Source: Candidatus Eiseniibacteriota bacterium
GTDB lineage: Bacteria; Eisenbacteria; RBG-16-71-46; CAIMUX01
Assembly (NCBI GenBank): GCA_903844735.1
Contig: CAIMUX010000136.1
Coordinates: forward strand, 1 to 64,000
Direction of reading: 5' to 3'
DNA: 64,000 bases
In this document: in pieces, positions 10,864 to 61,981 of the stretch
Position numbering within the stretch: position 1 is the stretch's first letter
Layout of the letters: each line of letters opens with the position of its first letter
Made by a program: the position numbers and the translations under genes
The notes under the pieces: model-generated
Database searches by the model: none
Told to the model about the DNA's origin: nothing
Seen by the model: the letters and a program-made list of their open reading frames with translations, nothing else

Positions 10864-10883
10864 GCTCTCCTCCACAGCCCGGC

Positions 10884-12134: not shown

Positions 12135-12201
12135 GACACGTCCTCCTCTTTGAACAGTTGATAACGGGGCAGCGCGCGCGCGTCGCTCGACGCGTACAAG
12201 T

Positions 12202-12237
12202 GCCCGTGACTATAGCCGATCCTCAGGCCCATGTCAA
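12202..12237 (-). promoter_or_regulatory. Sigma-70 promoter for the Gly-rich/SRE-repeat operon
   Basis: On the minus strand TTGACA (12237-12232), a 17-base spacer, then TATAGT (12214-12209). The -35 is perfect and the -10 matches 5 of 6. Transcription would start near 12202, giving a leader of about 68 nt before the ATG at 12134. Confidence 0.75.
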
Positions 12238-12450
12238 CAATATCGGAAGTGTAATCCGCGCTGTCGCGTCGCAGTGACGATCCGTACAAGCGATGACGGC
12301 GCTCGCGCCACCACTCGCCTGCGATTCTGTCCCGACTGATCATCCCCTGACAAAGCCGACATCGATCACGACCACCTTCAACGTCCGGTAGCGCTCGCGG
12401 TACCTCCGGCACGCATTCCTCGCGCCGGCTCACGGCCGGTCGCCCGAAAC

Positions 12451-44000: not shown

Positions 44001-45516
44001 CACGATCAGGAACACCGGCGGCGGGATGCTTTCGGGTACCGTGGGGACCAACTGCAACGTCTATTCCGTCATCACCGGCAACGGCGATTTCCTCCTGGGT
44101 GCTGACGATTCGCTTGTCGTCACGATCCGTTTCACACCGCAAGTCGAACTGACCGCGGCATGCACCGTGACTCTCGGGAACGACCTCTGCACCGACGTCG
44201 TATGCTCGGGCGCGGGCCAAGGACCTCTTTGCGTCGTGAGTCCAAACAGCCTCGATTTCGGCAGCATCCAGGTCGGCGAGAGACCCACGCAAACCTTCAC
44301 CGTGACGAACGTCGGAGGGGGACATCTCACTGGATCGGTTCCCCCGACGCTCCCCGGAAGTTCCTTCGCTCTCGATGCGGGTCAGGGGGCCTTCGACCTG
44401 GTTCACGATGGGGTCCACAGCGTGACGGTGGCCTATGTACCGTGGTATGCGGGAGACCACGACTTCCAGATCGAGACCGGCACCGACTGTACCGGCTCCG
44501 GTATGGGCCCGGTGATTGGTGTCGGACACGCGAGCGGTTGGGGGATGGGCTTCGCCAACAATGCACCCGACGGCATAGTCAACACCCTCGCCGTCGACGG
44601 CTCCAACCTCGCGGTCGGCGGCACGTTCTCGGCGATCGTCGGCTACCCCCCGGCGATGAGCATGGCGTGGTGGACCGGCTCCGCCTGGATCACCACCATT
44701 CGCGACTGGCCCATCTGGGCGAGGGTGGATGTCCTCCACGAATGGCAGGGACACGGATTGGTCATAGCCGGCCAGGCGTTCGACTTTCCAGGGATATTGG
44801 CGACACAGACATTGGCGGATGGCACATGGGAGCCCCTGGAGTGGCCTATTGTCGGCGGCGCAGTGAAAACCCTGGCCACGTGGCAGACCGACCTCTTCGT
44901 CGGCGGCGAGTTCACAACCCCGGTAGCTTTCCTGGGCCGGTGGAACCAACCGTTTTGGGAAGCCACCAACAACGGCCTCATCGCATCCGGCGTGAACGAC
45001 CTCGAAAGCCTCGACGGAGCGTTGTACTGCGCCACGACCGCTTCCGCCACCGATCCATCTCGGGGCGGCGCGATCTACCGGTGGGACGGAGGGTTCTGGA
45101 CCTACCTGGTCGACACCATCAACTCCGTGCCCCTCACAAGCATTCTGAAGCTGGCCACGCACAACGGAGCGCTCTACGCCATCGTCGAGAACGGCGATGG
45201 CTCCTATGTGGCTCGGCTTCAAGGGGCCACTCTCGTCCAGGTCGGCAAGGCGGCGGCGGGCAGCTACTTCGTGGATCTCGCATCCGACGGCACACAACTC
45301 TACGTCGTCGGCAGCTTCGATGGAATCGACGGCGTGCCCGCCGCGCGGGTGGCGGCGTGGGATGGATCGACCTGGCACGCTCTCGGTTCCGGTCTCTCTG
45401 GAGGTCCGGCCCGCCCCAACGTGATTCTACCGTTCGACGGATCGATCTATGTGGGCGGCAACTTCACCATCGCCGGCGGAATACCATCACCCTACATCGC
45501 CCGCTGGATTCCTTGA
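41077..45516 (+). CDS. Giant lipoprotein: FN3, six Cys-rich Ig-like repeats, propeller-like end
   Basis: 1479 residues. The ATG at 41077 overlaps the TGA before it and has GGAGGACC upstream. The lipobox is LLPGC (Cys27). About four FN3 domains (about 200-545) are followed by six choice-of-anchor-D/ASPM-SPD2-Hydin-like repeats of about 100 residues (about 550-1140). Each opens like CSVSPTSLDFGTVTLG with TFTITNTGGG, and most carry four or more cysteines. The C-terminal part (about 1150-1479) has blades like those of the proteins at 16648-23203 (VAAWDGSTWHALGSG, YVGGNFTIAGG). It is probably displayed on the cell surface and stabilised by disulfides. The TssC-like gene follows after 13 bases. Confidence 0.85.
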   Translation: MKHAKLNLRARSASLLAILILTLLPGCGNESRPSRPGTAGLQIHLLFPDKIAAGTAGVAGTTSVQTIRVSAWEVPGGEAPWILRDSTTALIAPDSTRFRLELQIPPAALYLLQVEAEGILGSPPNATGNGLLFLGSENIADVVAGETRPVEIALRRAVPALQGKVVPTGLSLSWGQVVGAVGYRLLETLPPPSLPRETFTPQTDTLIVFPPRAKTEAPEQRTYRVRAELPDGLFSAYSESVGVSVPEPVAPAGIEDLVVVNADTTEIRLAWTATGDDQRVGRAKEYDLRRSASPITTENAFAAAIRINGLPAPRTSAQLDSFTVTGLLPATDYYFAIKAADDVPLWSPLSNTPRGTTTPLPPAAPQGLAAEALSDTAIRLHWIDWATNETRYRIERQSPTDRQFVLAATMIGSFSGVVEYRDGKLTERTSYRYRVRAENAGGNSAWSSEVVQRTGIARPTNLTAAAVAPDSVALTWSFPLPNPTNGFRLERRSVSAGFVEVGRAAPADRAFGDGGLEPLTTYAYRLRAVDGRDVSDPSDSVEVTTPDLLPVCAVDPPTLAFGTVLSGSWVEQTFTISNTGGGILSGSVVVSCKAFSVVSGGGEFALGAGQTQEVTIRFTPTSLGDVQCTITPTGGCSSVTCSGTGDALPLCSVSPTSLDFGTVTLGRFEDRTITITNIGGGTLSGTVATAIGCYYYSILTGDGAFSLAAGQAHVVTVRFAPVSIRSAVCNVTLGTSSGCSSVSCIGTGEPTAACSVSPDTLDFGTQPVGSLVDSTFTVTNTGGGTLTGNIAVDCDGFAVISGGGDFALAAGSTRDVTIGFSPTSPGAALCTITPTGDCPAVLVSGTGEALPVCSVFPMWIDFATVPVGASADQTFTITNTGGGTLSGNVEIDRSGYSIITGSGAFSLGAGDSLVVWIRFAPLVADAQECRVTLGAADCPPVLCAGIGLAVPVCSIEPTSLDFGTVPIDTDADQTFTIRNTGGGMLSGTVGTNCNVYSVITGNGDFLLGADDSLVVTIRFTPQVELTAACTVTLGNDLCTDVVCSGAGQGPLCVVSPNSLDFGSIQVGERPTQTFTVTNVGGGHLTGSVPPTLPGSSFALDAGQGAFDLVHDGVHSVTVAYVPWYAGDHDFQIETGTDCTGSGMGPVIGVGHASGWGMGFANNAPDGIVNTLAVDGSNLAVGGTFSAIVGYPPAMSMAWWTGSAWITTIRDWPIWARVDVLHEWQGHGLVIAGQAFDFPGILATQTLADGTWEPLEWPIVGGAVKTLATWQTDLFVGGEFTTPVAFLGRWNQPFWEATNNGLIASGVNDLESLDGALYCATTASATDPSRGGAIYRWDGGFWTYLVDTINSVPLTSILKLATHNGALYAIVENGDGSYVARLQGATLVQVGKAAAGSYFVDLASDGTQLYVVGSFDGIDGVPAARVAAWDGSTWHALGSGLSGGPARPNVILPFDGSIYVGGNFTIAGGIPSPYIARWIP

Positions 45517-45529
45517 GCAGGAGGACTCG

Positions 45530-46873
45530 ATGTCAAAGCCGAACCTGATCGCACTGGTGGACCTAGGCCTTCCGGAGGTGGTCCGCGTGTCCGCGGAGGC
45601 GGTGAATCCCGACGGCTGGCTCGCCGCGCTGGCCCCGCAGGCCACGATCCCGGCGCCCGGAGGCGGGACCACGACCTATTCGTGGAAGAGCGCCCACGAC
45701 TTTCGTCCCGCGGATATCGCCGCGCGCATTCCCGGCGCCTCGGGTAGCGAACTCGACCGAATCGTCCAGGCCCCCCCGTTTCAGCGGGTGGAATCGGCGT
45801 GGCGCGGCGTGCGTTTCCTCCTCGATCAGGGTGGCGACGGCGCCGAAGCCGAGGTGATAGCCGTCCCCCGCACCGGGATCGCGGATGCGCTGCGCGAGCA
45901 GGTGGTGGATCCCGTGCGTCGCGACGACCGCAAGGGGCCGCCACTCATCCTCCTCGACTTCGATTTCGGACACCAGGCCGCGGATTTAGCACTGCTCGCG
46001 GAGATCGCCGAGATGGCTGCGGAGTTGAACGCGCCGGTCGTCGCCCACGCGTCTCCCTCCATCTTCGGCCTGCGCCACTTCGCGCATCTCGCTGCCTTCC
46101 CGGATCCGATCGGTGCGATCAAGGGCCCGTCCCACGCCCCCTGGCGCGAGTTCCAGGCCTCGGAATCGGCGCGGTGGATCTGCCTGACGCTCGGGCGGTA
46201 TCTGCAGCGCATGCCTTACGACATCGAGTCGCCCCCCTACCGTGAGGCCGTGGCGGAGGCTAGGCCCGACTCGTTTCTCTGGGGGCGCGGGATTTGGGTG
46301 GTCGGGGCCGCCGCCGTCCGCAGCCTCCGCACCCACGGACATGCGATGGACCTGTCCGGGCGGGGCGGCATGTTCAACGACATGCCGTCGCGGGGATACC
46401 CTAAGTCCGCCAACGAGTCGGTCGCCCTTTCCACGGAGGCGCCGCTTCCCGAGATGCGCGCCTCGGAGCTCGCGTGGGCCGGTTTCACACCGTTGGCCGG
46501 CGTGATGCGCGCGGGCACGGTTCTCATGCCGATGGTCGTGACCTGCTCCCGCCTCTCCCCGGGGCGGCTCACTCTGGAAGGCTCCCTGGCCTATCAACTG
46601 CTCGCGGCCCGGCTCGCGTCGTGCCTGGGGGACGTGCTGAGCGGGGACGCGCTTACCGAAGGTGCAGCGGAAGCGCTGCTTCGGGGCGCACTCCTGGATT
46701 GTCTGGGACCCTTGGCGGGAGAAACGCCGGAGACGGCGGTGGTGGTCGAGATGGTTCCCGCCGACCCGGAGCCGGGATCTCGCCCCTGTGCCCGCGTGCG
46801 CGTCACGCCGCAGATCCGCATCGAGGGGAAGCAGCCGGAGTTTGTGTTCGAGCTGCCGGTGCGGACAGCGTGA
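45530..46873 (+). CDS. TssC-like T6SS sheath protein with TssB-like N-terminus
   Basis: 447 residues; the ATG at 45530 follows GGAGGACTCG. Residues about 75-447 align with the sheath large subunit: LDRIVQAPPFQRVESAWRGV, ASESARWICLTLGRYLQRMP, DSFLWGRG, MRASELAWAGFTPL, LEGSLAYQLLAARL. Residues 1-70 end in SAHDFRPADIAARIPG, which resembles the C-terminal TssB motif (DF.Pd.ia..vP). The usual ~100-residue N-terminal region of TssC is absent. It may be a fused, shortened sheath subunit or a diverged accessory copy. Canonical tssB is not in the window. It is attached to the CsgG/lipoprotein operon. Confidence 0.75.
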   Translation: MSKPNLIALVDLGLPEVVRVSAEAVNPDGWLAALAPQATIPAPGGGTTTYSWKSAHDFRPADIAARIPGASGSELDRIVQAPPFQRVESAWRGVRFLLDQGGDGAEAEVIAVPRTGIADALREQVVDPVRRDDRKGPPLILLDFDFGHQAADLALLAEIAEMAAELNAPVVAHASPSIFGLRHFAHLAAFPDPIGAIKGPSHAPWREFQASESARWICLTLGRYLQRMPYDIESPPYREAVAEARPDSFLWGRGIWVVGAAAVRSLRTHGHAMDLSGRGGMFNDMPSRGYPKSANESVALSTEAPLPEMRASELAWAGFTPLAGVMRAGTVLMPMVVTCSRLSPGRLTLEGSLAYQLLAARLASCLGDVLSGDALTEGAAEALLRGALLDCLGPLAGETPETAVVVEMVPADPEPGSRPCARVRVTPQIRIEGKQPEFVFELPVRTA

Positions 46874-47136: not shown

Positions 47137-47802
47137 ATGGCTTTCACGGGCGGAACGACAGGCGACCGCGCATCACGATCCTCAACAGCGGGAGGGCGCT
47201 CCGGCCCCCCGGAGATCCGAGACCGGTTCGGCGTGGCTCACTGCTTCTCGTGGTTCCGCTCCTCTGGTGAGGCGCCGTCACGCGCCTTCAGCGGCCTCGA
47301 TGACGCCCGGAGATTTCTCGATGGCTTCGGCCGGGATCCGTGGACCCTCGCCGCGTTCTATCGGATCCTTGGAAACTCGGTTGCCGCAGGCCGTGGTCCG
47401 GATCCGGCGCGCCTCATGCAGTCGATGGCGGCGGCGCTGGCCGGGGGAAGTCTCCAGGTGGGTCCCGCCGAAAGGTTGAGCCCGTCGGACTCTTCGCAAC
47501 CGTCACTCCCGTCGCGCTCGCCGCTCGGCGCCGCGCTCGCCTCGGCCATCGAGGAGCTCGCGTCCGAACCAACGGAGCCCCCCACGCCGCGTGAAACGGA
47601 ACTCACCTGGATCGAGGTGGAGCTTGTGGGAGAGGACGACAAGCCGATCGCGGGCGAGCGGTACCGGCTCACGCTCTCCACCGGCCGCGTCCTCGAAGGC
47701 TCGCTCGACGCGCAGGGAAGGGTCCGCATCGAGCGGATGACGCCCGGAACCTTCGACCTCACCTTCCCACGACTCGATGAGGAGGCCTGGAACCGTGCCT
47801 AA
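47137..47802 (+). CDS. T6SS-associated protein with carboxypeptidase-regulatory-like end
   Basis: 221 residues; the ATG at 47137 has GGCGGAG upstream. The N-terminal ~140 residues are poorly conserved and end in a Ser/Pro linker. The C-terminus (about 150-221: TWIEVELVGEDDKPIAGERY, GRVLEGSLDAQGRVRIERM, GTFDLTFPRLDEEAW) is a small beta domain often attached to T6SS tip or cargo proteins. It probably links cargo to the spike or sheath. It is the first gene of the cargo island. Confidence 0.6.
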   Translation: MAFTGGTTGDRASRSSTAGGRSGPPEIRDRFGVAHCFSWFRSSGEAPSRAFSGLDDARRFLDGFGRDPWTLAAFYRILGNSVAAGRGPDPARLMQSMAAALAGGSLQVGPAERLSPSDSSQPSLPSRSPLGAALASAIEELASEPTEPPTPRETELTWIEVELVGEDDKPIAGERYRLTLSTGRVLEGSLDAQGRVRIERMTPGTFDLTFPRLDEEAWNRA

Positions 47803-47869
47803 CAGTGGAACGACCCATCCGAGCCACCGCGCCCCTGCGGTCGGACCCGCGCCGCGAGTGTCGCCATGA
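47795..47869 (+). CDS. Possible 24-residue coupling ORF
   Basis: GTG at 47795 with an excellent site (GAGGAGGCCTGGAACC); it ends at TGA 47867-47869, which overlaps the ATG of the next gene (ATGA). The product (VPNSGTTHPSHRAPAVGP and so on) is Pro-rich and unlike anything known. It may only couple translation of the two genes. Confidence 0.3.
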   Translation: MPNSGTTHPSHRAPAVGPAPRVSP

Positions 47870-48525
47870 GTGCCGACACCAGGGCGGGCGCCTATCGCGA
47901 CCATGCTGCCCGGAAGGGCGACTGCATCACCTCGATCGCCGCCGCCTATGGTCACTTCTGGGATGTCGTCTGGAACGATCCGGCGAACGCGGAACTGAAG
48001 GAACTTCGCCAGCACCCGAATCTCCTCAGGGAAGGGGATACCGTGCATGTTCCGCCGATCCGTTTGCGGACATCTTCTTCCCTCGGCACCGGCACCACAC
48101 ATCGCTTTCGCCGAAAGGGGATACCGGCAACACTGAAGCTCCGCTTCACCGACTTCGATGAGCCGCGCAAGGATCTCCCCTACCAGCTTCTGGTCGACGG
48201 CGCCCCGGTCCAGGAAGGGAAGCTCGACGGTGACGGAGGGCTGGAGGCGTGGATTGCACCGGGGGCACAGAAGGCTCAAGTCCTGCTGGGAGATCCCCCG
48301 GAGACGCATGAATTCCTGCTCGGCCATCTTCCGCCGGTGTCGGAGATCGCCGGGGTGCATGCGCGGCTCGGCAATCTGGCCTACCCCGCGGGACCGACGA
48401 CCGAGGAGATGACCCCCCGGCTCGGCGACGCCATCCGCCGTTTCCAGAGGGACTGGGAGATGGAGGAGACCGGGGAACCCGACGAGGCAACGCGGCAGAA
48501 GCTGGCAGAGGTGCACGGATGCTAA
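47866..48525 (+). CDS. LysM-like and peptidoglycan-binding-domain protein
   Basis: 219 residues. The N-terminal ~55 residues are LysM-like (GDCITSIAAAYGHFWDVVWN followed by LREGDTVHVPP). A beta region (about 75-140) follows, and the C-terminus is a PG_binding_1-type helical domain (LGNLAYPAGPTTEEM, DAIRRFQRDWEMEETGEPDE, ATRQKLAEVHGC). This order is common in genes beside T6SS cargo and spike proteins. It should bind glycan or act as an adaptor for the following YiiX-like protein. Its start overlaps the small ORF above. Confidence 0.78.
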   Translation: MSADTRAGAYRDHAARKGDCITSIAAAYGHFWDVVWNDPANAELKELRQHPNLLREGDTVHVPPIRLRTSSSLGTGTTHRFRRKGIPATLKLRFTDFDEPRKDLPYQLLVDGAPVQEGKLDGDGGLEAWIAPGAQKAQVLLGDPPETHEFLLGHLPPVSEIAGVHARLGNLAYPAGPTTEEMTPRLGDAIRRFQRDWEMEETGEPDEATRQKLAEVHGC

Positions 48526-48629: not shown

Positions 48630-50135
48630 ATGCCGCCGATCAAACCTCCCGCCAATGTCCTCTACGAGAAGCCGACCTGGCTGAAGCAGCCCGCCGGTCC
48701 GAAGCACCCCCACGGGTACAAGCAGTGGTTCCTGCCGGTCATGTACGACCTGGACGAGGTGCTCGACCATTTCGATCTCGACGGGGCGATGTCCGACCTG
48801 GATGACCTGGCCGACTACAACTTCGGCACGAAGAAAATCCCCTACGACATACGCAAGGGAGGCGTCGAGTGGTACCTGCTGAACTATGCGGGATTGGTCC
48901 AGGTCAACCGCCTGCTGTGTGCCGACGGAAACGTCGAGACCTGGCTCTGGATTCCCGGCAATGTCGTGATCGAAGATGGGTACGGCACCGTGGGGCCGCT
49001 GCAGAAGAAGAAGCCGCCGCCGCCACCTCCGCGCGTGCCTCCGCGGCCCGCCCCCGACGCTCCGATCCGCCTCGCCGCCCGAAGCCAGCAGGCGGGACCG
49101 AGGGCGGTAACGACGATCGACCAGAAGTTCCGGCCCGGCGACATTCTGCTGGCCGAGCACCAGGGTGACGTCTTCATCCAGCAGATGACCCTGACCTGGC
49201 CGACGCACGCCGGAATCTGCCTCGATCCTTCCAAGGACAAGGCGGTGGACGCCATGCCCAGCCGGGGCGACCATGCCGTGGCCGAGACAGGCCTGAATGC
49301 ATTCTTCCACGCCAAGATCACGCCCGGTGGCGGGCTGGTCTACCGCTACACCGCCGCCGCCAACGACACCGCGAACCGGGAGATCGGGCAGAAGGCTGCG
49401 CTCTGGGCGCAGGCGCAGATCGGCCACAAGTACCACTTTACGCTGCGGAGCCCGATCCTGGGCGAGGAGCGCGACAAGAAGGACAAGTTCAAGGTCGAGG
49501 ATCACCACTTCGACGCCCAAGGCGAGGCGACCGACGAGACGGGCCTGCCGCTCATGATCGACACCAAGTCCAGAGGCCCGATCCACCGTCTGCATGACAT
49601 CTACTGCGCAGAGCTGGTCTGGCGCGCCTATCGCTTCGGGGCCGGCATCGTCCTGGTCGATCCCAAGATGTTTTTCTGCCTGTACGACCATCCGAACCGG
49701 GCCGTCGTTGGGCTCATGTCCTTCCAGATCGGTTCGGAGGCGCGGACCTACATCTCCGGCGATGTCATTCCGGGCTCCTCACCCACCCTGGAGTCGATCA
49801 AGAGGCACTTCTCAGGCGGCTGGGCGCACTTGCTCACCAACCGCCTGGCTCGCCATTTCGCGTTGAAGAAGATGCGCGCGAAACACAACGGTTACCTCTG
49901 CGCACCGCATCAGTTCCTGCAGTCCCCGGTCCTGCAGAAGGTCCGCCGAATCACTCCCGACAAATCGCTGGTCAAGCACAAGGTGTACAACTTCCACCAG
50001 GCCGATGTCCACCCACTCGACGTGGCCCTGAACCGCGAGAAGGGGGAGAAGCTGTTCCAGGACTGGTGCAAGACCAAGGGCAAGCCATGCGAGACGTCGG
50101 TGGACGCCCCCCTGAATCTGCAAGCCGCGCCGTAG
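48630..50135 (+). CDS. Permuted papain-like (YiiX/NlpC-P60-like) putative T6SS cargo, copy 1
   Basis: 501 residues. An N-terminal domain (about 1-125) has YNFGTKKIP and ends LWIPGNVVI; a Pro-rich linker (KKKPPPPPPRVPPRP, about 127-140) follows. Then comes a permuted papain-like core: RPGDILLAEHQGD, WPTHAGIC (His193) and IYCAELVWRAYRFGAG (Cys326), the YiiX-type His...Cys order. The C-terminus (about 345-501) is specific to this pair, with GYLCAPHQFLQSP and YNFHQADVHPLDV. Such folds cleave amide, ester or lipid bonds. The island setting, without a signal peptide, suggests T6SS-delivered cargo. No clear immunity gene follows; the HEAT-like gene is the nearest candidate. Confidence 0.72.
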   Translation: MPPIKPPANVLYEKPTWLKQPAGPKHPHGYKQWFLPVMYDLDEVLDHFDLDGAMSDLDDLADYNFGTKKIPYDIRKGGVEWYLLNYAGLVQVNRLLCADGNVETWLWIPGNVVIEDGYGTVGPLQKKKPPPPPPRVPPRPAPDAPIRLAARSQQAGPRAVTTIDQKFRPGDILLAEHQGDVFIQQMTLTWPTHAGICLDPSKDKAVDAMPSRGDHAVAETGLNAFFHAKITPGGGLVYRYTAAANDTANREIGQKAALWAQAQIGHKYHFTLRSPILGEERDKKDKFKVEDHHFDAQGEATDETGLPLMIDTKSRGPIHRLHDIYCAELVWRAYRFGAGIVLVDPKMFFCLYDHPNRAVVGLMSFQIGSEARTYISGDVIPGSSPTLESIKRHFSGGWAHLLTNRLARHFALKKMRAKHNGYLCAPHQFLQSPVLQKVRRITPDKSLVKHKVYNFHQADVHPLDVALNREKGEKLFQDWCKTKGKPCETSVDAPLNLQAAP

Positions 50136-50162
50136 GCGGAATCACGGAGGAAGGCCGGACAA

Positions 50163-51386
50163 ATGGATGACACGACGGAGGCCGGGCTTCCTCCGGCCTA
50201 CATCTCGATCCGCGGGTTCTGGGAGCGCCTCACCTCACAGGAAGTGGTCCGCGTGCGAAGAGACTTCGGGCAGGGCTACACCGGAGTCGTCCTCTGGGGC
50301 GATTCGCTTCTTCCGGAGGATCGCCGGTTCGAGCTCACCCGCGCGGAGTTCCTGGACTACGAATACGACCAGGACCTCGGTTTCTCGGTGGGGGTGTCCG
50401 ACCGGCTGCCTCCAGCGCTTGTGTGGGTCATCGGGGCCCCGCCGATGGAGAACGAGACCGTCCCGAACACGGACCAGTTGGAACTGGCGCGCCGGCTCCT
50501 GCGTGGGTCTCCCGCGCCGTGGCCGTGGGAGTCCCGATCGGCGGCGGAGCGGGTCCTGTGGAATCTGGCCGAGCGGAAGACCACCCCGCCCCTTGCGGTT
50601 CTCGAGCTCTGCGCCTTGGCGCCGGCGACACACACGAACACCGCGCCTCTCTCCCGCGCTCTCGTGCCCGCCGTGACCGAGGGACGTCTCGGTCGCTACG
50701 AGGCGATAGGGTTGCTGGCCGATTCCTTGGTACCCGATCGGATCACCTACGACACGCGGAGGGAGATCCTCCTGTCGGCACTTCCCGACGCGGAGATCCC
50801 GCTGGACGCAGCGATCCTGCTGCTCCGCGAGTTGCATCCGACCGCCGGGGACCACGAAAGCTACACCTCGACCGGCCAGGTCTCGGCGCTGCACGCAGAG
50901 CGGGAACTGCTTCTGAAGGCCTTGGCCCTTCTGACAACCGATGCCCGGGCGGTCGAGGCGCTGCGGGCCGTCATCGACAACGAAGCCCGCGAGGACGCCT
51001 TCACGGTGAAGGTCGCGATCTGGGCGCTCGGACGACAAAACGGCAAGAGCGCGATCGGTCACCTGATCCCGCTGCTCGACCAGCCGCAGTACCGAATCTA
51101 CCGGACGGAGATCGAGGAAGCGCTGTCCTTCCTCTGCTCCGGCGCCGAGCTCGTTCCTAAGGCTCAGGAGGAGGAAGAGAAGGAATACTGGACCAAGGTG
51201 AGCCTGCGCCTCCCCACGGATGCGGAAGCCTGGTGGCGCCACGACGCCGAGAGCGTGTTCTGGGAAAAGCGTCTGCGCTGCGCGCGGACCCTGGACCGGC
51301 ACCCCGGCGCGGTGGATCACGCCGTCCGGCTCCAGGACGATGAGGTTCCGGTCGTGCGCGTGGCAGCCAGGGGGCTGACGCCGTGA
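50163..51386 (+). CDS. HEAT-like helical protein between the two cargo genes
   Basis: 407 residues. The ATG at 50163 lies 28 bases after the previous gene, with GGAGGAAGG upstream. The N-terminal ~130 residues are not recognised. The rest is predicted alpha-helical with repeat-like pairs (ALRAVIDNEAREDAFTVKVA, IWALGRQNGKSAIGHLIPLL, ALSFLCSGAELVP; a final HAVRLQDDEVPVVRVAARGL), as in HEAT/armadillo proteins. No membrane helix or signal peptide. It may be an adaptor, chaperone or immunity protein for the flanking cargo proteins. Similar HEAT-like proteins occur in T6SS clusters; the function here is inferred from position. Confidence 0.6.
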   Translation: MDDTTEAGLPPAYISIRGFWERLTSQEVVRVRRDFGQGYTGVVLWGDSLLPEDRRFELTRAEFLDYEYDQDLGFSVGVSDRLPPALVWVIGAPPMENETVPNTDQLELARRLLRGSPAPWPWESRSAAERVLWNLAERKTTPPLAVLELCALAPATHTNTAPLSRALVPAVTEGRLGRYEAIGLLADSLVPDRITYDTRREILLSALPDAEIPLDAAILLLRELHPTAGDHESYTSTGQVSALHAERELLLKALALLTTDARAVEALRAVIDNEAREDAFTVKVAIWALGRQNGKSAIGHLIPLLDQPQYRIYRTEIEEALSFLCSGAELVPKAQEEEEKEYWTKVSLRLPTDAEAWWRHDAESVFWEKRLRCARTLDRHPGAVDHAVRLQDDEVPVVRVAARGLTP

Positions 51387-51457
51387 GCGCCGCGGCGAAG
51401 AGGGGATGGATCTTGAACCGGACACTTGCACCTGCAGGCGCCTGCCGCCTGCGCTAA
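51383..51457 (+). CDS. Possible 24-residue ORF ahead of cargo protein 2
   Basis: GTG at 51383 overlaps the TGA of the HEAT-like gene (GTGA), is in frame with the cargo gene at 51473 and stops 15 bases before it. The gap contains GGGGCAGAACCGATG, matching the leader of cargo 1. Coding status is doubtful. Confidence 0.2.
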   Translation: MSAAAKRGWILNRTLAPAGACRLR

Positions 51458-51472
51458 CGCGGGGCAGAACCG

Positions 51473-52990
51473 ATGCCACTACCCATCAAACCGCCCGCCA
51501 ACCTCCTCTACGAAGAGGAGAAATGGAAGAAGGGACCCGCGGGCCCCAAGGTTCCGCACGGCTACCGGCGGTGGGACGTCCCGATCATGTACCCGTTCGA
51601 GGCTCTCGCTGCCCTCGTCGACGTCGACGGCAAGAAGATGGACGCCGAGGCACTGGCCGACTACAACTTCGGCACCAAGAAGATCCCGCAGCCCGCGCGG
51701 GAGGGAGGTGTCGTCTGGTATCTGCTCACCTTCGCCGGCTTCGAACAGGAAGACCCGGTGGTGTGGACTACCGGCGGCGGAGCGTGGCTCTGGGTCCCCG
51801 GCCAGGCCACGATCGAGGAAAACCTGGGAACGCTGGGCGAGCTACGGAAGAAGAAGCCGCCCCCTCTCCCGGTCCCGCCGCGGCCAGCTCCCGATGCGCC
51901 GATACGCCTTGCCGCCCGCAGCCAGCCGCAGGGACCGCAGGCGGTCACCACGATCGACCAGAAGCTCCTTCCGGGTGACGTCCTGCTCTCCGAGCACCAG
52001 GAAGATGACTTCATCCAGGCGATGACGCTGACCTGGCCGACCCACGCCGGGATCTGCGTCAAGCCCCAGACTGATACCGCCGTCGATGCGATGCCGGGCC
52101 GCCAGGACCACGCCGTCAACACGACGGAGATTTCGAAGAAGTTCTTTCACGAATACGAATCACCGGGCGGCGGCCTCATCTACCGCTACACGGGCGGCGG
52201 GGACCCGGCGAAGAACAAGCAGGTCGGGCTCGCGGCCGCGAACTGGGCTGAGGCGCAGGTGGGCCGGGAGTATCACTTCACCTTGAAGAGCCCGATCCTG
52301 GGTGAACAACGCGATGCCAAGGAGAACGTGCAGAGCTTTCGCTTCGAGGTTCCCGAACAGAAGTTCGACGCCAAGGGCCAGGCGATCGATGCGAAGGATC
52401 AGCCGATCATGATCATGACCAAGACGAAGGGGGAGATTCGCAAGCTTCATGACATCTACTGTGCGGAGTTGGTTTGGCGGGCCTACCGCTTCGGCGCCGG
52501 GGTGGCTCTGGTCGACCCGAAGCGCTTCTTCTGCATGTACGACCACCCCAATCGGGTCGTGACCGGATTGGTGGCGTTCCAGATACAAGCGGAAGCGGAG
52601 ACGGAATACAGCGGACGGATCAAGCCGGGATCCTCGCCGACCCTAGAGGGGATCAAGAAGGGGTTCTCGTCGTTCTGGGGCCACATGGCGACCCGCGCGC
52701 TCGCCCGCAAGATCGTCATCAAGAAGATGCGGACCAAGCACACCGGCTACCTTTGTGCGCCGCATCAGTTCCTGGAGTCGACGCTGCTGACGAAGGTCCG
52801 CTCGGTCAAGCCCAGCAAGTACCTGAACAAGCACGAGGTGTACAACTTCCACCAAGCCGACATCCATCCGCTGGACGTAGTGGAGAATCTGGAGGCGGGC
52901 GAGCTCGCGTTCAAGAAGTGGTGCAAGGCGAACTCCGAGGTCTGCGAGACGTCGGTCGACGATCCGCTGCATCTGCAGCCCAAGGTGTGA
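51473..52990 (+). CDS. Permuted papain-like putative T6SS cargo, copy 2
   Basis: 505 residues, paralogous over its full length to the gene at 48630. Shared features are PIKPPANLLYEE, YNFGTKKIP, the LWVPG strand, a KKKPPPLPVPPRPAP linker, LPGDVLLSEHQEDD, WPTHAGIC (His191), IYCAELVWRAYRFGAG (Cys330) and KHTGYLCAPHQFLES. The N-terminal 120 residues and the core flanks diverge most, while the catalytic blocks are nearly identical. Both copies keep the His/Cys pair, so both should be active. It ends 103 bases from the convergent DUF6484 gene. Confidence 0.72.
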   Translation: MPLPIKPPANLLYEEEKWKKGPAGPKVPHGYRRWDVPIMYPFEALAALVDVDGKKMDAEALADYNFGTKKIPQPAREGGVVWYLLTFAGFEQEDPVVWTTGGGAWLWVPGQATIEENLGTLGELRKKKPPPLPVPPRPAPDAPIRLAARSQPQGPQAVTTIDQKLLPGDVLLSEHQEDDFIQAMTLTWPTHAGICVKPQTDTAVDAMPGRQDHAVNTTEISKKFFHEYESPGGGLIYRYTGGGDPAKNKQVGLAAANWAEAQVGREYHFTLKSPILGEQRDAKENVQSFRFEVPEQKFDAKGQAIDAKDQPIMIMTKTKGEIRKLHDIYCAELVWRAYRFGAGVALVDPKRFFCMYDHPNRVVTGLVAFQIQAEAETEYSGRIKPGSSPTLEGIKKGFSSFWGHMATRALARKIVIKKMRTKHTGYLCAPHQFLESTLLTKVRSVKPSKYLNKHEVYNFHQADIHPLDVVENLEAGELAFKKWCKANSEVCETSVDDPLHLQPKV

Positions 52991-53093: not shown

Positions 53094-53876
53094 TCAGTTC
53101 AGCTTGATCTCTTCGCCGGTGACGACCACGTCACCTCCGGCCGCGAGAGACACCTCGCCGCGCGCAAGGAAGTCGATCGCGTCGGCGGCAAATGTCAGCC
53201 GTCCGGCGATTTCCAGCCGCTGATTGGCGCACGCCAGGCGCAGCACGGGACCGGCGGGCGTGGGTAAAATCGCCAGCAGCGGCGCCCCGTCGGCATCGCG
53301 AATCTCCAACGTCTCGTCGTTCTTCATGGTCAGCGCCGCGGCCGCGTGGCTCACCGCCGTACGCTCGCGCAAGCCATCGATCACGCCGACAACCAGCGGC
53401 TCGGGCCAGTTGCCGGGCTGGAGCAGAAGCACGCGATCCTCGCGGCGCACGGGTAGATGCGCGAGTGTAGCCAGCCACCGATCCTGCTCGCCGGCGCCGG
53501 CGTCGGTGCGGACCAGAACCCGCCCAGCCAGGGTCGGGTGCGCGTCGTCGATACAGAGGCCGACGAGCGCGGAAGAGCCGGGACCGGGACTCGCGGCCGG
53601 CTTCGCGGCCTCCGTCAGGACCTCGGGCTGCGGCAGGATCGCCCCATGCGGTTCGTTCGACTCGCAAATCGGCTCGGACGAACGACCCGAGTCCACCCGA
53701 TCGGACGCCGCCGTGGCCTCGGCAATGATCTCCACCAAGTCGGGAGCAAGGCCCCTCACCGGGAAACACGCGCGCTGCCCCGACGTGCAACCGGCGATCG
53801 CTTCCAGACCCGTCGGTTCGGACACGGCCGGCATCCCGGCCGGGGACTTGGACGGAAGCCTCGGTTCTCGCATCAT
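53094..53876 (-). CDS. DUF6484-domain T6SS-associated protein
   Basis: 260 residues; the ATG at 53876 overlaps the TGA of the DUF2169 gene (ATGA). The N-terminal ~95 residues are disordered. The DUF6484-like core (about 100-165: ALVGLCIDDAHPTLAGRVLV, WPEPLVVGVIDGL) is a small beta module. The C-terminus (about 185-260) has short gp5-like beta strands (LRLACANQRLEIAGRLTFAA, LAAGGDVVVTGEEIKL). The family occurs next to VgrG and DUF2169 genes and probably helps attach cargo to the spike. Last gene of the minus-strand cluster. Confidence 0.72.
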   Translation of the reverse strand: MMREPRLPSKSPAGMPAVSEPTGLEAIAGCTSGQRACFPVRGLAPDLVEIIAEATAASDRVDSGRSSEPICESNEPHGAILPQPEVLTEAAKPAASPGPGSSALVGLCIDDAHPTLAGRVLVRTDAGAGEQDRWLATLAHLPVRREDRVLLLQPGNWPEPLVVGVIDGLRERTAVSHAAAALTMKNDETLEIRDADGAPLLAILPTPAGPVLRLACANQRLEIAGRLTFAADAIDFLARGEVSLAAGGDVVVTGEEIKLN

Positions 53877-55108
53877 GGGTTGCCCTCCTCGCCGGCCCGC
53901 AGCTCCGCCACGCGCTCACGCACCGGAACCGGCGCCTGGAAGTCGACCGGCATCGAGCCGTCGAGCGAAGCCCGCACGGGAATATGTTTGTGAATGCCGG
54001 GAAGGAACGGCCGGGGGAGCGGAACATCGGCCGCGAAGACAAGGTTCAAACGCAGCTCCTCGGGGCGGCAGACGATGTGGTGAAGACGCGCCGGCCTCAC
54101 CGTCTTCTTTCCCTCGATCTCGAAGACGATCTTCCGGTCGGTGACGGGCAGCACGAACTCCAGAAGGTCGAACTCCGGGTGCATGCCGGTCACCGACAAC
54201 ACCTGGCCGTCGCCGGGACGGGTGATGACGAGACCGTGGCTGGCCCCCTGGAAGAAGCGGGCGTCCACGGTTCCTCCCGGGCACCGGTTGCGCCGGAAGT
54301 CCTCACCGACGAACCCCCGCTTCACTTCGGCGAGGATGCCGTCGTCAGGCGCGGGAAACCACGGATCGACGTCGGGACCGAACCAGCAGGCGCGCGGGTA
54401 CATGATCGGGCTCGTCCAGTCCATGCACCAGGGTAGCGGCTGCCGCCACCAGGCCTTCGCATCGCACGTGATGAGACGATCGTCGGCGAGCGGGTCCGCC
54501 GGGTCCTCCAGGCATGGTGCGAACATCTTCGGGACCTCGCCATCGTGCACCAGGTACCCCATGCCGAACGGATTTCGCGGGTACATCCCCGGATGCTCGA
54601 ACTGCACGCGCATCGCCATGGCCGGTATTTCGGTGAAGATCTTCTGGTCGGCGCCCGGCACCGGCACCCGCCAGTCGATCCCCCCGTAGGCCTGGGCCCA
54701 CGTCATCGGCATCGTGAGGAACGGTTCGGGCGCGCCGATCCGCGGACGGCCAGCCTCCCAGGTGATCGGGCGCGGTCCCCACACCGTCACGTCCTTGCGC
54801 GTGTCGCCCAGGCACACCCGCACCGAGAGGCGCGGCGCCGACTTGCCCTGCGGCGCGCACGCCGAGCCCTGGATCACCAGGTCCGTGAACGGTTTCGCCA
54901 GCCAAAAATCGCTGCCGCCGATCTTCGGGCGCTCCAGCTCGGGGTCGCGCCAGTCGTGGAGCAGCGGCTCGGCCGGAGCGGGGACGCACTGGCCCGGCGC
55001 GATGGCGTAGGTGAGCTTGAACAGCGCGTGCGCCTGTTCCGTCTCGCCGCGCAGCGGCGTGAGGATGACCTCGGCGTCGTAGCCTTCGTGAGCAGGTGTG
55101 CGTGCCAT
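53873..55108 (-). CDS. DUF2169 T6SS adaptor/chaperone (copy 1)
   Basis: 411 residues; its ATG (55108-55106) shares one base with the TGA of the PAAR-like gene. Family hallmarks are FTDLVIQGSACAPQGKS, LTMPMTWAQAYGGIDWRVP, YPRNPFGMGYL and the C-terminal ARLHHIVCRPEELRLNLVF. DUF2169 proteins are adaptors that load PAAR-type proteins and cargo onto VgrG. This copy is longer than the second DUF2169 gene at 55956. Confidence 0.85.
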   Translation of the reverse strand: MARTPAHEGYDAEVILTPLRGETEQAHALFKLTYAIAPGQCVPAPAEPLLHDWRDPELERPKIGGSDFWLAKPFTDLVIQGSACAPQGKSAPRLSVRVCLGDTRKDVTVWGPRPITWEAGRPRIGAPEPFLTMPMTWAQAYGGIDWRVPVPGADQKIFTEIPAMAMRVQFEHPGMYPRNPFGMGYLVHDGEVPKMFAPCLEDPADPLADDRLITCDAKAWWRQPLPWCMDWTSPIMYPRACWFGPDVDPWFPAPDDGILAEVKRGFVGEDFRRNRCPGGTVDARFFQGASHGLVITRPGDGQVLSVTGMHPEFDLLEFVLPVTDRKIVFEIEGKKTVRPARLHHIVCRPEELRLNLVFAADVPLPRPFLPGIHKHIPVRASLDGSMPVDFQAPVPVRERVAELRAGEEGNP

Positions 55109-55959
55109 CAGAGTGTCACCGGGGTGCCCAGAGTCTGGCCCGCCCCCGTCGTGTCCCCCCGTGCGCCCGGAACGTTGCCCGTCGCCACCACCGACGGCTG
55201 ACCGGCGGCGGCCATGGGGCTGATGGCAACCTGACCGCCCAGGAACGGAAGACCGGCCGAAACCGTGATCGTCGGGTTGCCGAGAAGCGAGCTGGTGATG
55301 AAACCAGACAGGATCGCGGGACCCGAGAGCCCTTTGACGGAATTGCTGAGCGCGGTCCCCAGAACATTCTCCATCAACACGCCCAGGCCTCGTCCTCCGA
55401 AGACCTGGTCAAACGGGATCTTGGAGAAGAGGTAGTCGGTGGCCATGGAGAAGACGATGGTGATCACGCCGACCAGGATGTCGAGCCAGGTGAGGCCCAC
55501 CTGCACGCCGTTGAAGACATTGATCATGGAATGCGTCGTGGGCGCCCCGATCGGATCGCCGCACGTCATCATCGGAATCGGCGGGAGGCCGAAGCACTGG
55601 GCGCAGGCCACCGCGGTGCCGTTCATCTTCACCGTGCTCGCCGCGAAGACCGGCTTACGGCTCGAGAACGGCCAGAACATCGGATAGGCGATGTTCGGGG
55701 CCGGCGGAATCGTGACGTCCGGAATCATCATGCCGCAGTCGTGGCCGTCGAGCACGATCCAGAATCCTCGATGCGTCACCGGTTTGCCGCCGTTGCTGAA
55801 TTTGTTCTGGTTCGCCAGAAAGCCCAGCGTCCACATCATCGTGCAGATCATCTCGATCGAGGGCGTCGGAACCGGCGCCGGAATCGCCGGCGGCGCCAGC
55901 ATGTTGTGCGTGAGAGCGCCGACGGAGAAGTCGTAGATGACGTTGATCTTGACCTTCAT
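55108..55959 (-). CDS. PAAR-like (DUF4150-type) T6SS tip protein
   Basis: 283 residues from the ATG at 55959, which follows GGAGGCCCACG; an open start at 55977 is weaker. It has the marks of DUF4150/PAAR-like tips: GGKPVTHRGFWIVLDGHDCG, IPDVTIPPAPNIAYP, FAASTVKMNGTAVACAQCFG and IPMMTCGDPIGAPTTHSMIN. The C-terminal half (about 150-283) is hydrophobic (LTWLDILVGVITIVFSM) with Gly/Ser-rich stretches. This extension may be a cargo domain that inserts in a membrane, or only structural. It lies between two DUF2169 adaptor genes with 4-nt and 1-nt overlaps. Confidence 0.75.
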   Translation of the reverse strand: MKVKINVIYDFSVGALTHNMLAPPAIPAPVPTPSIEMICTMMWTLGFLANQNKFSNGGKPVTHRGFWIVLDGHDCGMMIPDVTIPPAPNIAYPMFWPFSSRKPVFAASTVKMNGTAVACAQCFGLPPIPMMTCGDPIGAPTTHSMINVFNGVQVGLTWLDILVGVITIVFSMATDYLFSKIPFDQVFGGRGLGVLMENVLGTALSNSVKGLSGPAILSGFITSSLLGNPTITVSAGLPFLGGQVAISPMAAAGQPSVVATGNVPGARGDTTGAGQTLGTPVTL

Positions 55960-57002
55960 CGTGGGCCTCCGTCCCAACTCTCATCGAGACGAAGGCGCGC
56001 AGTACGTGGTTCCCCGTCAGGCGGCGGCACCGGGATCCAGCCGCGAAAGACCAGATAGCAGCGCGACTCCTCCGGTAGGAGCACGAGGACCTGCGGGGCC
56101 AGATCGATCGTCCGCGTGGAGCCGTTCGTGTGCAGATCCACCCGCACGCCCAACCGCGGCAGCGGGAACGACCAGGAGCCTCGTTCCGTGACTCCCCGGA
56201 CCTCGACCACGGCTCCGGCCTCCGGCGCGTGTGGAAGAACCCAATCCGGGTGTGCCCGGTGGAAAACACCGGGACCGATCTGCGGTCCGTCCGGGCCGTC
56301 CTGCATCAGGCGCAGCGCGTGGATCGCGGACGTGGTCGGCACCGGCGCCCAGCAGGCCGGCTCGGGAGAATCCTCCCAGACGCTCACCGGGCTGTCGGGA
56401 CGCTCGACGTTGGGCAGGAGGCGCGTGGGATCGAACTTCGGATAGCCCTTGGGAGATTTCATCTGCTTGCCCAACGCCGCAGCGTCGGGTGACGGGTCCC
56501 AACCCCGGCCGACCGCATTTCGCACATCGGACAGATCGACAAACGACTCCCGGTCGATCTCCACCGCGCAGGTGCCTCCGAAGGCCCGTTCCCACGTGAG
56601 CGGCATCACCCCGAACGGCTCGGGATCGGTGGGGCGCTGGCGGAGGCGTTGTTTCTCCCAGCGCCGGTCGCCGGTGACCAAAAGCTCGCGCCGCGTGGAG
56701 CCGACCGCCAGAGACACGCTCATGCGCGTGCACGGCGCGCCGCCGGGGGCACGGGCTTGGCCGAACAGCACGACCTCGAAGACCGGATCACAACGCGGCA
56801 GATCGTCGCGCGGCAGGTCGCCGAGCGGCGTCGGCGTGTCCTTGGGCAGCAGCTCCAGCGGGGCCTGGGTCTCGAGTTCCGCCTTTCCGCCGGCGATGTT
56901 GAACGTGGCCTTGGCCACGGCCGTCGCCACGCGCCGGCCGAATCCGGGCATCTCGCTGACGGCCAGCGTTGCGGGCAACGGATGTGGATTCGCAAGCTCC
57001 AT
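55956..57002 (-). CDS. DUF2169 T6SS adaptor/chaperone (copy 2)
   Basis: 348 residues. The stop overlaps the start of the PAAR-like gene by 4 bases (ATGA), and the start lies 10 bases after vgrG. Hallmarks are LELLPKDTPTPLGDLPRDD, GVMPLTWERAFGG, YPKFDPTRLLPNVERPDSPV and a final beta segment with CYLVFRGWIPV. Two DUF2169 copies around one PAAR-like gene suggest that each serves a different partner. Confidence 0.83.
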   Translation of the reverse strand: MELANPHPLPATLAVSEMPGFGRRVATAVAKATFNIAGGKAELETQAPLELLPKDTPTPLGDLPRDDLPRCDPVFEVVLFGQARAPGGAPCTRMSVSLAVGSTRRELLVTGDRRWEKQRLRQRPTDPEPFGVMPLTWERAFGGTCAVEIDRESFVDLSDVRNAVGRGWDPSPDAAALGKQMKSPKGYPKFDPTRLLPNVERPDSPVSVWEDSPEPACWAPVPTTSAIHALRLMQDGPDGPQIGPGVFHRAHPDWVLPHAPEAGAVVEVRGVTERGSWSFPLPRLGVRVDLHTNGSTRTIDLAPQVLVLLPEESRCYLVFRGWIPVPPPDGEPRTARLRLDESWDGGPR

Positions 57003-59227: not shown

Positions 59228-61981
59228 TCAACCCCCAAAGGTGATCGCGAAACCGTCCGCGTCGCCGACCCCCACGGCCACCGAGTCGGGCAGGGGACCT
59301 TCCGCCATCCGTTCCAGCAAGCGGGTGGACAGAAGCGGCAGGAGGTTCTGGTTCACGATGTGATCGATGACCCGGGCACCGGAATCAGGATCCTGGCACC
59401 GCTCCGCAATCAAATCGACCACCTTCTCGTCCACATCCAGCCGCATGCGGTGGCTGTCTTGCATCCGTCCTACGACCTTCTTCAGCTTGAGCCGGATGAT
59501 CGACTTGAGGAACTCCCCCGCCAACGGAAAGAACGGAACGATCTCCATGCGGCCCAAGAGCGCCGGCTTGAAGTGCTTGGAAAGGATCGGCCGGATGGCG
59601 TTTTTCACCTCGTCGACGGTCGGCGGCACCGGTCCGGTGCACATCTGCATGATGACGTCGGTGGCCAGGTTGCTGGTGAGGAAGATCACCGTGTTCTTGA
59701 AATCGATGATCCGCCCCTCGCCGTCGGCCGCCATCCCCTTGTCGAAGACCTGGTAGAAGATGTTCATCACTTCCGGGTCGGCTTTCTCCACCTCATCAAG
59801 AAGAACGACCGAGTATGGCTTCTGCCGGACCGCCTCGGTCAGCACGCCGCCTTCCCCGTAGCCGACATAGCCTGGAGGAGAGCCGAGGAGCCGGCTCACT
59901 GTGTGCTTCTCCTGAAACTCGGACATGTTGATCGTCGTGGTGAAGCGGTCCCCTCCAAACATGAGGTCGGCCACGGTGAGGGCGGTCTCGGTCTTGCCCA
60001 CGCCGCTCGGTCCCACAAAGAGGAAGACCCCGATCGGCGTCTGCGGATTCTTGAGGCCCGCGCGGGCTGCACGCATCCCGCGATCGACCGCATCCAGCGC
60101 CTGGTCCTGGCCTTTGATCCGCTCCGCCATCCGATCCCGAAACTGCAGCACGGCGGCCGCCTCGTCACTCACCATCTTGCCCACAGGAATTCCGGTCCAA
60201 CCCGACACCACGGCGGCCACGACACTCGCGTCCACGTCCAGCGGAACCAGGGGGACCGCTCCCTGCTTCTCCTTGAGGCGGGCCAGCGCCTGGATCAGCT
60301 CGACGCGCAGGGCGGCCTGCTCTTCAGGGGTGAGAAGAACGGGCGCCTGTGGTGCGGTGGCGACGGTCCCTGCCCCGGCAGCCGTTTCGGCTCCGACGGG
60401 CACTGCCTTCGCCCCAGCACCCTTCGCCTCAGCTCCGGCCGCCGGCGAGACGGAGGCATCGCCATCGAGGCGGGCGCGCAGCGCCAGCACCTCCTCAATC
60501 GCTTGCTTCTCCTGCTCCCACTTCTCCACCAACCGCACGCGCTCGGCTCGCATCCGATCCTCGTCTTGCTGCAGCGCGGCCACCCGCGCGGGGTCACTGC
60601 TGCTGCCGGCCAGCGATTCCTCGCGCCGGAGCGATTCGCGCTCGCGCTCGAGCTCCTGCAGCTTCCGGTCGAGCTCGTCCACGACCTCCGGGACGGTGAC
60701 GCGCGCGATCTTGACCCTAGCCGACGCAGTATCCATCAGGTCGACCGCTTTGTCCGGGAGTTGCCGGCCGGAGATGTACCGGCTGGACAGACGCGCAGCC
60801 GCCTCCACCGCTTCCTCACGGATCCGCACGCCGTGAGCCGCCTCGTAGCGATCGCGCAGACCGCGCATCATGAGAATGGCCGCTTCCTCCGTCGGCTCGT
60901 CGATCTTGACCACCTGGAAACGGCGCTCCAGCGCAGCATCCTTCTCGAAGTACTTCTTGTACTCCGACCAGGTCGTGGCGGCGATGGTCCGCAACTCGCC
61001 CCGCGCCAGCGCGGGTTTCAGGAGATTGGCGGCATCACTGCCGCCCGCGGTTCCACCGGCGCCGATCAGGGTATGCGCCTCGTCGATGAAGGTCACGATG
61101 GGTATCGACGAAGCCTTGACCTCAGAGATCACCCCCTTGAGCCGATTCTCAAACTCACCGCGCACGCCCGCGCCCGCCTGCAGCAGGCCCAGGTCGAGCG
61201 AAATCAAACGCACGTTCTTGAGGACATCGGGAACGTCGCCTTTGACGATGCGCAGCGCCAGACCTTCGACCACCGCCGTCTTTCCCGTGCCCGGCTCCCC
61301 CACCACGATCGGATTGTTCTTCCGCCGGCGGGCCAGGATGTCGATCATGGCCCGGATTTCGCGATCGCGCCCGAAAACAGGGTCGATCTCTCCCCGGCGC
61401 GCGCGCTCGGTGAGGTCGACCGTGAACTTCCCGATGGCGGTCTCTTCCGCCGGGCGACCCGGCGCCCCGGTCGATGGAGCACCGGACGGGTCCAGCGGCG
61501 CCTCGGCCTCGCGCGAGGTGGCGCAGATCCGATAGAGGTCGCCGCGCAGCTCGTCCCGCTTGATCCCACCGAGATGCTCAGAGAGATCGGTGCTGGCATA
61601 TCGCTCCGGGCGCAGGGCCAAGACGAGAAGAAGCGTGCCGCTGCGCACCGCCGTATCCTGATGCTCGACTGAGGCCATCATCCACGCGTCGCCGATCCAC
61701 TCGATGAGAAGCGGCGAGAAGACGGGCCGGCCGCTGTTCCCGCCGCGCAGACGGTCGAGCGCGTGCTGGACGGCCGCCAACAGGCGCGCCGGGTTGATGC
61801 CGTAGTGGCGGAAGATCTTGAGGACGTCCGCCTCGGGATCCTCCAGGAACTGGAGGAGCAGGTGCTCCGCCGTGACCTCGTAGTGCCCCCGGGAGATACA
61901 AAGCCCGGCGGCGGACTCGAGCGACTTCTTGGTATACCGGTTGAGCCGGCGGACCAGCCCTTTGATGTCCAGTTCCAGCAT
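59228..61981 (-). CDS. ClpV (TssH) sheath-disassembly ATPase
   Basis: 917 residues; the ATG at 61981 follows GGAGGGATCTCGCC. An N-terminal Clp-N domain (about 1-160) is followed by AAA1 (Walker A GEPGTGKT near 228-235; VTFIDEAHTLIG), a coiled middle region and a Gly/Ala-rich insert (about 505-540). AAA2 has GPSGVGKT near 655-662 and SVVLLDEVEKADPEVMN. It belongs to the ClpV branch of ClpB-like unfoldases and recycles the contracted TssB/TssC sheath. It lies between tssG and vgrG, 39 bases after tssG. Confidence 0.95.
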   Translation of the reverse strand: MLELDIKGLVRRLNRYTKKSLESAAGLCISRGHYEVTAEHLLLQFLEDPEADVLKIFRHYGINPARLLAAVQHALDRLRGGNSGRPVFSPLLIEWIGDAWMMASVEHQDTAVRSGTLLLVLALRPERYASTDLSEHLGGIKRDELRGDLYRICATSREAEAPLDPSGAPSTGAPGRPAEETAIGKFTVDLTERARRGEIDPVFGRDREIRAMIDILARRRKNNPIVVGEPGTGKTAVVEGLALRIVKGDVPDVLKNVRLISLDLGLLQAGAGVRGEFENRLKGVISEVKASSIPIVTFIDEAHTLIGAGGTAGGSDAANLLKPALARGELRTIAATTWSEYKKYFEKDAALERRFQVVKIDEPTEEAAILMMRGLRDRYEAAHGVRIREEAVEAAARLSSRYISGRQLPDKAVDLMDTASARVKIARVTVPEVVDELDRKLQELERERESLRREESLAGSSSDPARVAALQQDEDRMRAERVRLVEKWEQEKQAIEEVLALRARLDGDASVSPAAGAEAKGAGAKAVPVGAETAAGAGTVATAPQAPVLLTPEEQAALRVELIQALARLKEKQGAVPLVPLDVDASVVAAVVSGWTGIPVGKMVSDEAAAVLQFRDRMAERIKGQDQALDAVDRGMRAARAGLKNPQTPIGVFLFVGPSGVGKTETALTVADLMFGGDRFTTTINMSEFQEKHTVSRLLGSPPGYVGYGEGGVLTEAVRQKPYSVVLLDEVEKADPEVMNIFYQVFDKGMAADGEGRIIDFKNTVIFLTSNLATDVIMQMCTGPVPPTVDEVKNAIRPILSKHFKPALLGRMEIVPFFPLAGEFLKSIIRLKLKKVVGRMQDSHRMRLDVDEKVVDLIAERCQDPDSGARVIDHIVNQNLLPLLSTRLLERMAEGPLPDSVAVGVGDADGFAITFGG

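What the first reader, a model, noticed from the sequence alone, without database searches (positions are those of the whole stretch)
48630..52990. Paired permuted-papain cargo proteins flanking a HEAT-like protein in a T6SS island
Seen: two full-length paralogues (501 and 505 residues) with the same order of a unique N-terminal domain, a Pro-rich linker, a His core (WPTHAGIC) and a Cys core (YCAELVWRAYRFGAG), with a long pair-specific C-terminus. The HEAT-like gene sits between them, and a LysM/PG-binding gene lies before them. Known: the His-then-Cys order is that of permuted NlpC/P60 (YiiX-like) enzymes, and VgrG/PAAR/DUF2169 genes nearby load T6SS cargo. Inference: this is a cargo set with an unusual architecture; a missing classic immunity gene makes the HEAT-like protein or peptidoglycan adaptor the candidates for protection or targeting.
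Basis: partly seen in the sequence, partly recalled or inferred. Interest (0 to 1): 0.78.

Follow-up and report, generated by a model that had tools for sequence, protein, structure and literature searches.

The report
Twin T6SS cargo enzymes, permuted-papain core
Next to the only spike gene of a bacterial harpoon (type VI secretion system), this genome carries two related, probably injected enzymes whose catalytic core belongs to a family that more likely cuts fatty-acyl groups on membrane lipids than cell-wall peptides, with a helical-repeat gene between them as the likely antidote.

Summary
Two paralogues (501 and 505 aa, 62% identical) flank a 407-aa HEAT-like gene, downstream of a LysM/PG-binding gene and beside a complete T6SS cluster that holds the only VgrG found in this genome assembly. 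The permuted papain-like core is supported by Pfam Peptidase_C92 (A just over the cut-off, B below it), by profile-profile comparison of both halves against shuffles, by an alignment with 22 phage relatives that keeps His193, Tyr268 and Cys326, and by a core model whose best solved match is BcPPNE (YaeF/YiiX type; weak E-values). The interpretation needs revising. LysM homologues in other T6SS loci sit before unrelated cargo enzymes, and stand-alone LysM proteins are published VgrG-effector adaptors, so this one is probably a loading adaptor, not protection. Permuted NlpC/P60 enzymes bind or cut lipids; the T6SS effector Tox-Act1 is a phospholipase and TseH shows phospholipase activity. Acyl-lipid or lipoprotein cleavage is therefore likelier than peptidoglycan cleavage. 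The HEAT-like gene is the best immunity candidate (27 bp after A; a second locus has cargo followed by HEAT genes; HEAT-like immunity has precedent), but this is unproven. No close homologue of A or B was found in the genomes sampled.

The parts
47137..47802 (+). small accessory gene with C-terminal TTR/CarboxypepD_reg-like motif (WIEVELVGEDDKPIAGERYRLTL...); likely spike-cargo linker
   Evidence: phmmer matches in other T6SS loci; the L027 homologue, which hits CarboxypepD_reg at E 6e-4 (below cut-off), lies between VgrG and LysM
47866..48525 (+). LysM-like + PG_binding_1 protein, likely cargo-loading adaptor
   Evidence: PG_binding_1 27.9 bits; homologues in G020, G028, G055 and G074, near varied cargo genes
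48630..50135 (+). cargo A: N-terminal domain (about 1-125), Pro-rich linker (126-160), permuted papain-like core (about 161-370, His193/Asp207/Tyr268/Cys326), C-terminal extension
   Evidence: Peptidase_C92 27.2 bits, cut-off 27; hhalign and alignment with viral C92 proteins; core model
50163..51386 (+). HEAT-like protein, candidate immunity protein; no obvious signal peptide
   Evidence: HEAT_2 E 1e-4, below the Pfam cut-off; 27 bp after A; hydropathy
51473..52990 (+). cargo B, paralogue of A (His191/Asp205/Tyr267/Cys330)
   Evidence: 62% identity to A; Peptidase_C92 22.7 bits, below cut-off
53094..53876 (-). 260-aa protein of unknown family in the VgrG gene run
   Evidence: no Pfam or NCBIfam hit
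53873..55108 (-). DUF2169 T6SS adaptor
   Evidence: 148.9 bits
55108..55977 (-). PAAR-like spike-tip candidate
   Evidence: inspection only; no family hit
55956..57002 (-). second DUF2169 adaptor
   Evidence: 169 bits
57013..59238 (-). VgrG, the only one found in the genome assembly
   Evidence: TIGR03361 580 bits; own-genome search
59228..61981 (-). ClpV/TssH
   Evidence: AAA_2, ClpB_D2-small, Clp_N

Best explanation
A and B are paralogous T6SS cargo effectors, loaded on the VgrG spike through the upstream TTR-like and LysM/PG-binding proteins (and possibly their own N-terminal domains). Their core is a permuted papain-like cysteine hydrolase (His193-Asp207-Tyr268-Cys326 in A) that most likely cleaves fatty-acyl ester or amide bonds of membrane lipids or lipoproteins in a neighbouring cell. 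The HEAT-like protein encoded between them most likely binds and neutralises them (immunity). Shown here by computation: the sequence family, the conserved residues and the T6SS context. Inferred: secretion, the loading route, substrate, and immunity.
For: Pfam C92 hit. hhalign of the A/B core against eight C92 proteins: probability 95.2, score 56.1, best of 100 shuffles 21.8; the Cys half alone: 90.9, score 37.8, best of 60 shuffles 20.8. Alignment with 22 phage C92 proteins: His193, Tyr268, Cys326, Glu328, Leu329 and Val330 invariant, Asp207 in the column that is mostly Glu in the relatives, matching the Cys-His-Glu triad plus Tyr of BcPPNE (PMC3142127). AF2 core model (mean pLDDT 63, pTM 0.67): four best PDB matches are the four chains of BcPPNE 3kw0, the fifth Aichivirus 2A. 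Complete T6SS cluster next door; single VgrG. Same-strand order TTR-LysM-A-HEAT-B with gaps of 63, 104, 27 and 86 bp. G028 locus L024: LysM, HExxH cargo, two HEAT genes, the second with a lipoprotein-type signal. HEAT-like immunity precedents: Tdi5a (PMC13392607), Imm-HEAT (PMC3482391). Lipid activity of permuted T6SS toxins: PMC12994826.
Against: Secretion and toxicity are untested. The fold match is weak (best Foldseek E 0.12, none at E <= 0.001), and the model was built from an alignment that already contained C92 relatives; the full-length model failed (pLDDT 28). The HEAT-like protein shows no signal peptide or TM segment, which does not fit a periplasm-acting toxin unless the toxin acts on the inner leaflet or immunity acts before secretion; it is one gene for two cargos and has no homologue in 118 genomes. 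No A/B homologue gives an independent T6SS association.
Confidence: 0.5

Rival explanations
1. A and B are T6SS cargo, but the core acts as a peptidoglycan amidase/endopeptidase like Tae-family effectors.
For: Nearby PG_binding_1 gene; canonical NlpC/P60 T6SS effectors are amidases; LysM loci in vgrG islands correlate with NlpC_P60 and lysozyme-like toxins (PMC10673891).
Against: The core is the permuted type with a C92 match; permuted structures have hydrophobic S1 pockets, and YiiX's is judged unsuited to a peptide (PMC3142127); Tox-Act1 cleaves phospholipids (PMC12994826). The LysM/PG-binding protein is a separate gene shared with loci whose cargo does not look like a PG enzyme.
Confidence: 0.25
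2. The HEAT-like protein is not immunity but a loading/chaperone or secreted accessory factor, and A/B target eukaryotes or need no dedicated immunity.
For: No signal peptide; one gene for two cargos; HEAT-repeat proteins also occur in vgrG clusters alongside a separate immunity gene (P. aeruginosa PA0101 context, PMC7970981).
Against: Position directly after A, 27 bp, parallel cargo-HEAT-HEAT order in G028, HEAT-like immunity precedents.
Confidence: 0.35
3. A and B are housekeeping enzymes (lipid or envelope remodelling) that merely lie beside the T6SS.
For: C92 proteins in general are not known as T6SS cargo; no homologue shows a repeated T6SS link.
Against: No signal peptide for a periplasmic housekeeping role; placed downstream of TTR and LysM genes that precede cargo in other T6SS loci; extra N- and C-terminal domains and a conserved linker.
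Confidence: 0.12

Closest known systems
YaeF/YiiX-like permuted NlpC/P60 enzymes (Pfam PF05708 Peptidase_C92; BcPPNE 3kw0, E. coli YiiX)
   Same: His-then-Cys order, acidic third residue, conserved Tyr, CxELV motif; best family hit and best PDB matches
   Different: A/B are about 500 aa with an N-terminal domain, Pro-rich linker, an insert of about 50 residues before the Cys motif and a long C-terminus; the Pfam score is marginal
Tox-Act1 (Salmonella T6SS phospholipase) and TseH (V. cholerae)
   Same: permuted NlpC/P60 core in a T6SS cargo context; inferred lipid target
   Different: Pfam gives only Peptidase_C92 at E <= 1; Tox-Act1 has a membrane-associated immunity protein, here a soluble HEAT-like candidate
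LysM stand-alone adaptors of vgrG loci (Ketobacter Kalk_10460, PMC10673891)
   Same: separate LysM gene before the cargo in a T6SS locus
   Different: here LysM is joined to PG_binding_1 and lies on the strand opposite vgrG; binding not tested
HEAT-like T6SS immunity protein Tdi5a (PMC13392607)
   Same: helical-repeat protein encoded beside a T6SS toxin
   Different: Tdi5a neutralises a nuclease; the window protein has an extra N-terminal region without a family hit and is untested

Membership tests
Permuted NlpC/P60 (Peptidase_C92, YaeF/YiiX-like) | profile match to the family | tested here: met
   A 27.2 bits vs cut-off 27; B 22.7, below cut-off; hhalign 95.2 with shuffle control
Permuted NlpC/P60 (Peptidase_C92, YaeF/YiiX-like) | His before Cys, acidic third residue and conserved Tyr | tested here: met
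   H193/D207/Y268/C326; His, Tyr and Cys invariant in 24 aligned sequences, Asp where most relatives have Glu
Permuted NlpC/P60 (Peptidase_C92, YaeF/YiiX-like) | papain-like permuted fold with residues in one pocket | tested here: inconclusive
   core model pTM 0.67, best matches 3kw0 but E 0.12; coordinates not available to measure distances
T6SS effector | encoded in a T6SS/vgrG locus with loading genes | tested here: met
   LysM and TTR homologues in other T6SS loci
T6SS effector | T6SS-dependent secretion and toxicity neutralised by immunity | not testable with these tools
   needs experiment
TseH / DUF4105 / LRAT branches of permuted NlpC/P60 | profile match to those families | tested here: not met
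   Pfam scan at E <= 1 returned only Peptidase_C92; no direct alignment with Tox-Act1 or TseH and no tree was made
T6SS immunity protein (HEAT-like) | binds and neutralises the adjacent toxin | not testable with these tools
   position and HEAT_2 match below cut-off only

The most novel reading that the evidence does not exclude
A separate, lineage-restricted branch of T6SS effectors built on the YiiX/C92 core instead of the TseH or Tox-Act1 branches, carried as a diverged pair with their own loading N-terminus and covered by one soluble HEAT-like immunity protein.
Probability: 0.35. Interest if true: 0.55.

Novelty: new variant of a known kind. Interest (0 to 1): 0.42.

Why it matters
[quoted passage not shown] A pair on the YiiX side of that superfamily, with no close homologue in the genomes sampled, would widen the group, and the A-HEAT-B arrangement gives a clear test of whether a soluble HEAT-like protein can protect against a membrane-lipid toxin.

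Tried and rejected
Homologue searches for A/B found nothing usable: 99 and 385 relatives (the G070 match lies over a transporter ORF), 195 genomes of G074's phylum, 132 of G055's phylum (only a 46-residue Cys-segment match), plasmids, two genome-contig scans and a viral scan; the collection scans used few patterns and the sets overlap, so absence is weak evidence. The full-length model from two sequences failed (pLDDT 28). PDB sequence searches gave only weak matches (E 0.012 or worse) to 'Cake' proteins, or nothing. PADLOC gave no hit. The first run of the ORF script used wrong record names and was redone. A T6SS-assembly hydrolase (TagX-like, from general knowledge) was considered and set aside because A/B lack a signal peptide.

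Full report
Observation. The three genes and the residue numbers in the finding are correct. A and B are 62% identical. Divergence is old (dS 0.96) and constrained (dN 0.30); the Pro-rich linker (88%) and the Cys segment (92%) are the best conserved parts, the N-terminal domain (53%) and the insert before the Cys motif (51%) the least.

Context. The opposite strand carries VgrG, two DUF2169 adaptors, a PAAR-like candidate and ClpV, then TssG, TssF, Hcp, TssC, TssB, TssA, TagF and TssM beyond the window. VgrG is the only one found in the assembly. On the plus strand the order is TTR-like, LysM/PG-binding, A, HEAT-like, B with short gaps. No sigma-70-like promoter was found in the stretch and terminator-like sites were at chance level.

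Core. Pfam places A at the C92 cut-off and B below it. The His half and the Cys half match separately and well above column-shuffled controls, and six other window proteins score at background. A scan of viral contigs gave 48 relatives of a C92 profile; 22 of them aligned with A and B keep His193, Tyr268 and Cys326, the kinds of residue named for BcPPNE (PMC3142127). The core model is of moderate confidence and its best solved matches are the four chains of 3kw0, but E-values are weak and the alignment already held C92 relatives.

Loading genes. LysM homologues occur in G020, G028, G055 and G074. In G055 (L027) the order is VgrG, TTR-like, LysM, HExxH protein; in G028 (L024) LysM, a PG-binding gene, HExxH protein, two HEAT genes; in G020 (L021) LysM is followed by a 1084-aa HExxH protein. 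Names of these cargos rest on weak Pfam scores or motif inspection. The variety of cargo argues for a general adaptor, as published for LysM (PMC10673891).

HEAT-like gene. HEAT_2 is below the cut-off, no homologue was found in 118 genomes, and no signal peptide is evident. Its place after A, the parallel in L024 and precedents make it the best immunity candidate; a chaperone or accessory role remains open.

Substrate. Published permuted enzymes have hydrophobic pockets. Tox-Act1 cleaves phosphatidylglycerol and phosphatidylethanolamine; TseH showed no activity in the mass-spectrometry assay but did in a fluorescence assay. Lipid or lipoprotein cleavage is therefore preferred over peptidoglycan, as inference.

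Confidence by step (own estimates): catalytic permuted core 0.85; T6SS cargo 0.8; lipid over peptidoglycan 0.6; HEAT as immunity 0.5.

Noticed in passing
window 45449-46873 (+): A divergent second TssC-like sheath protein (VipB 130 bits in Pfam; TIGR03355 124 bits against a cut-off of 271) lies just upstream of the cargo set, apart from the canonical TssC in L005 6071-7549; relatives stand near a LysM gene in G020 (L026 5051-6415 and 6431-8308, the latter with a TssB-like N-terminal part).
   Followed up: partly
L024 (G028 C42:36001-56000) 9477-12254: LysM-linked HExxH cargo followed by two HEAT-repeat genes, the second starting with a lipoprotein-type signal.
   Followed up: partly
window 40687-45516 (+): A 1609-aa reading frame with many Ig/ASH-like and fn3 domain hits lies upstream of the TssC-like gene; other frames overlap it.
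   Followed up: no
window 53094-53876 (-): A 260-aa protein between DUF2169 and the cargo set has no family hit.
   Followed up: no
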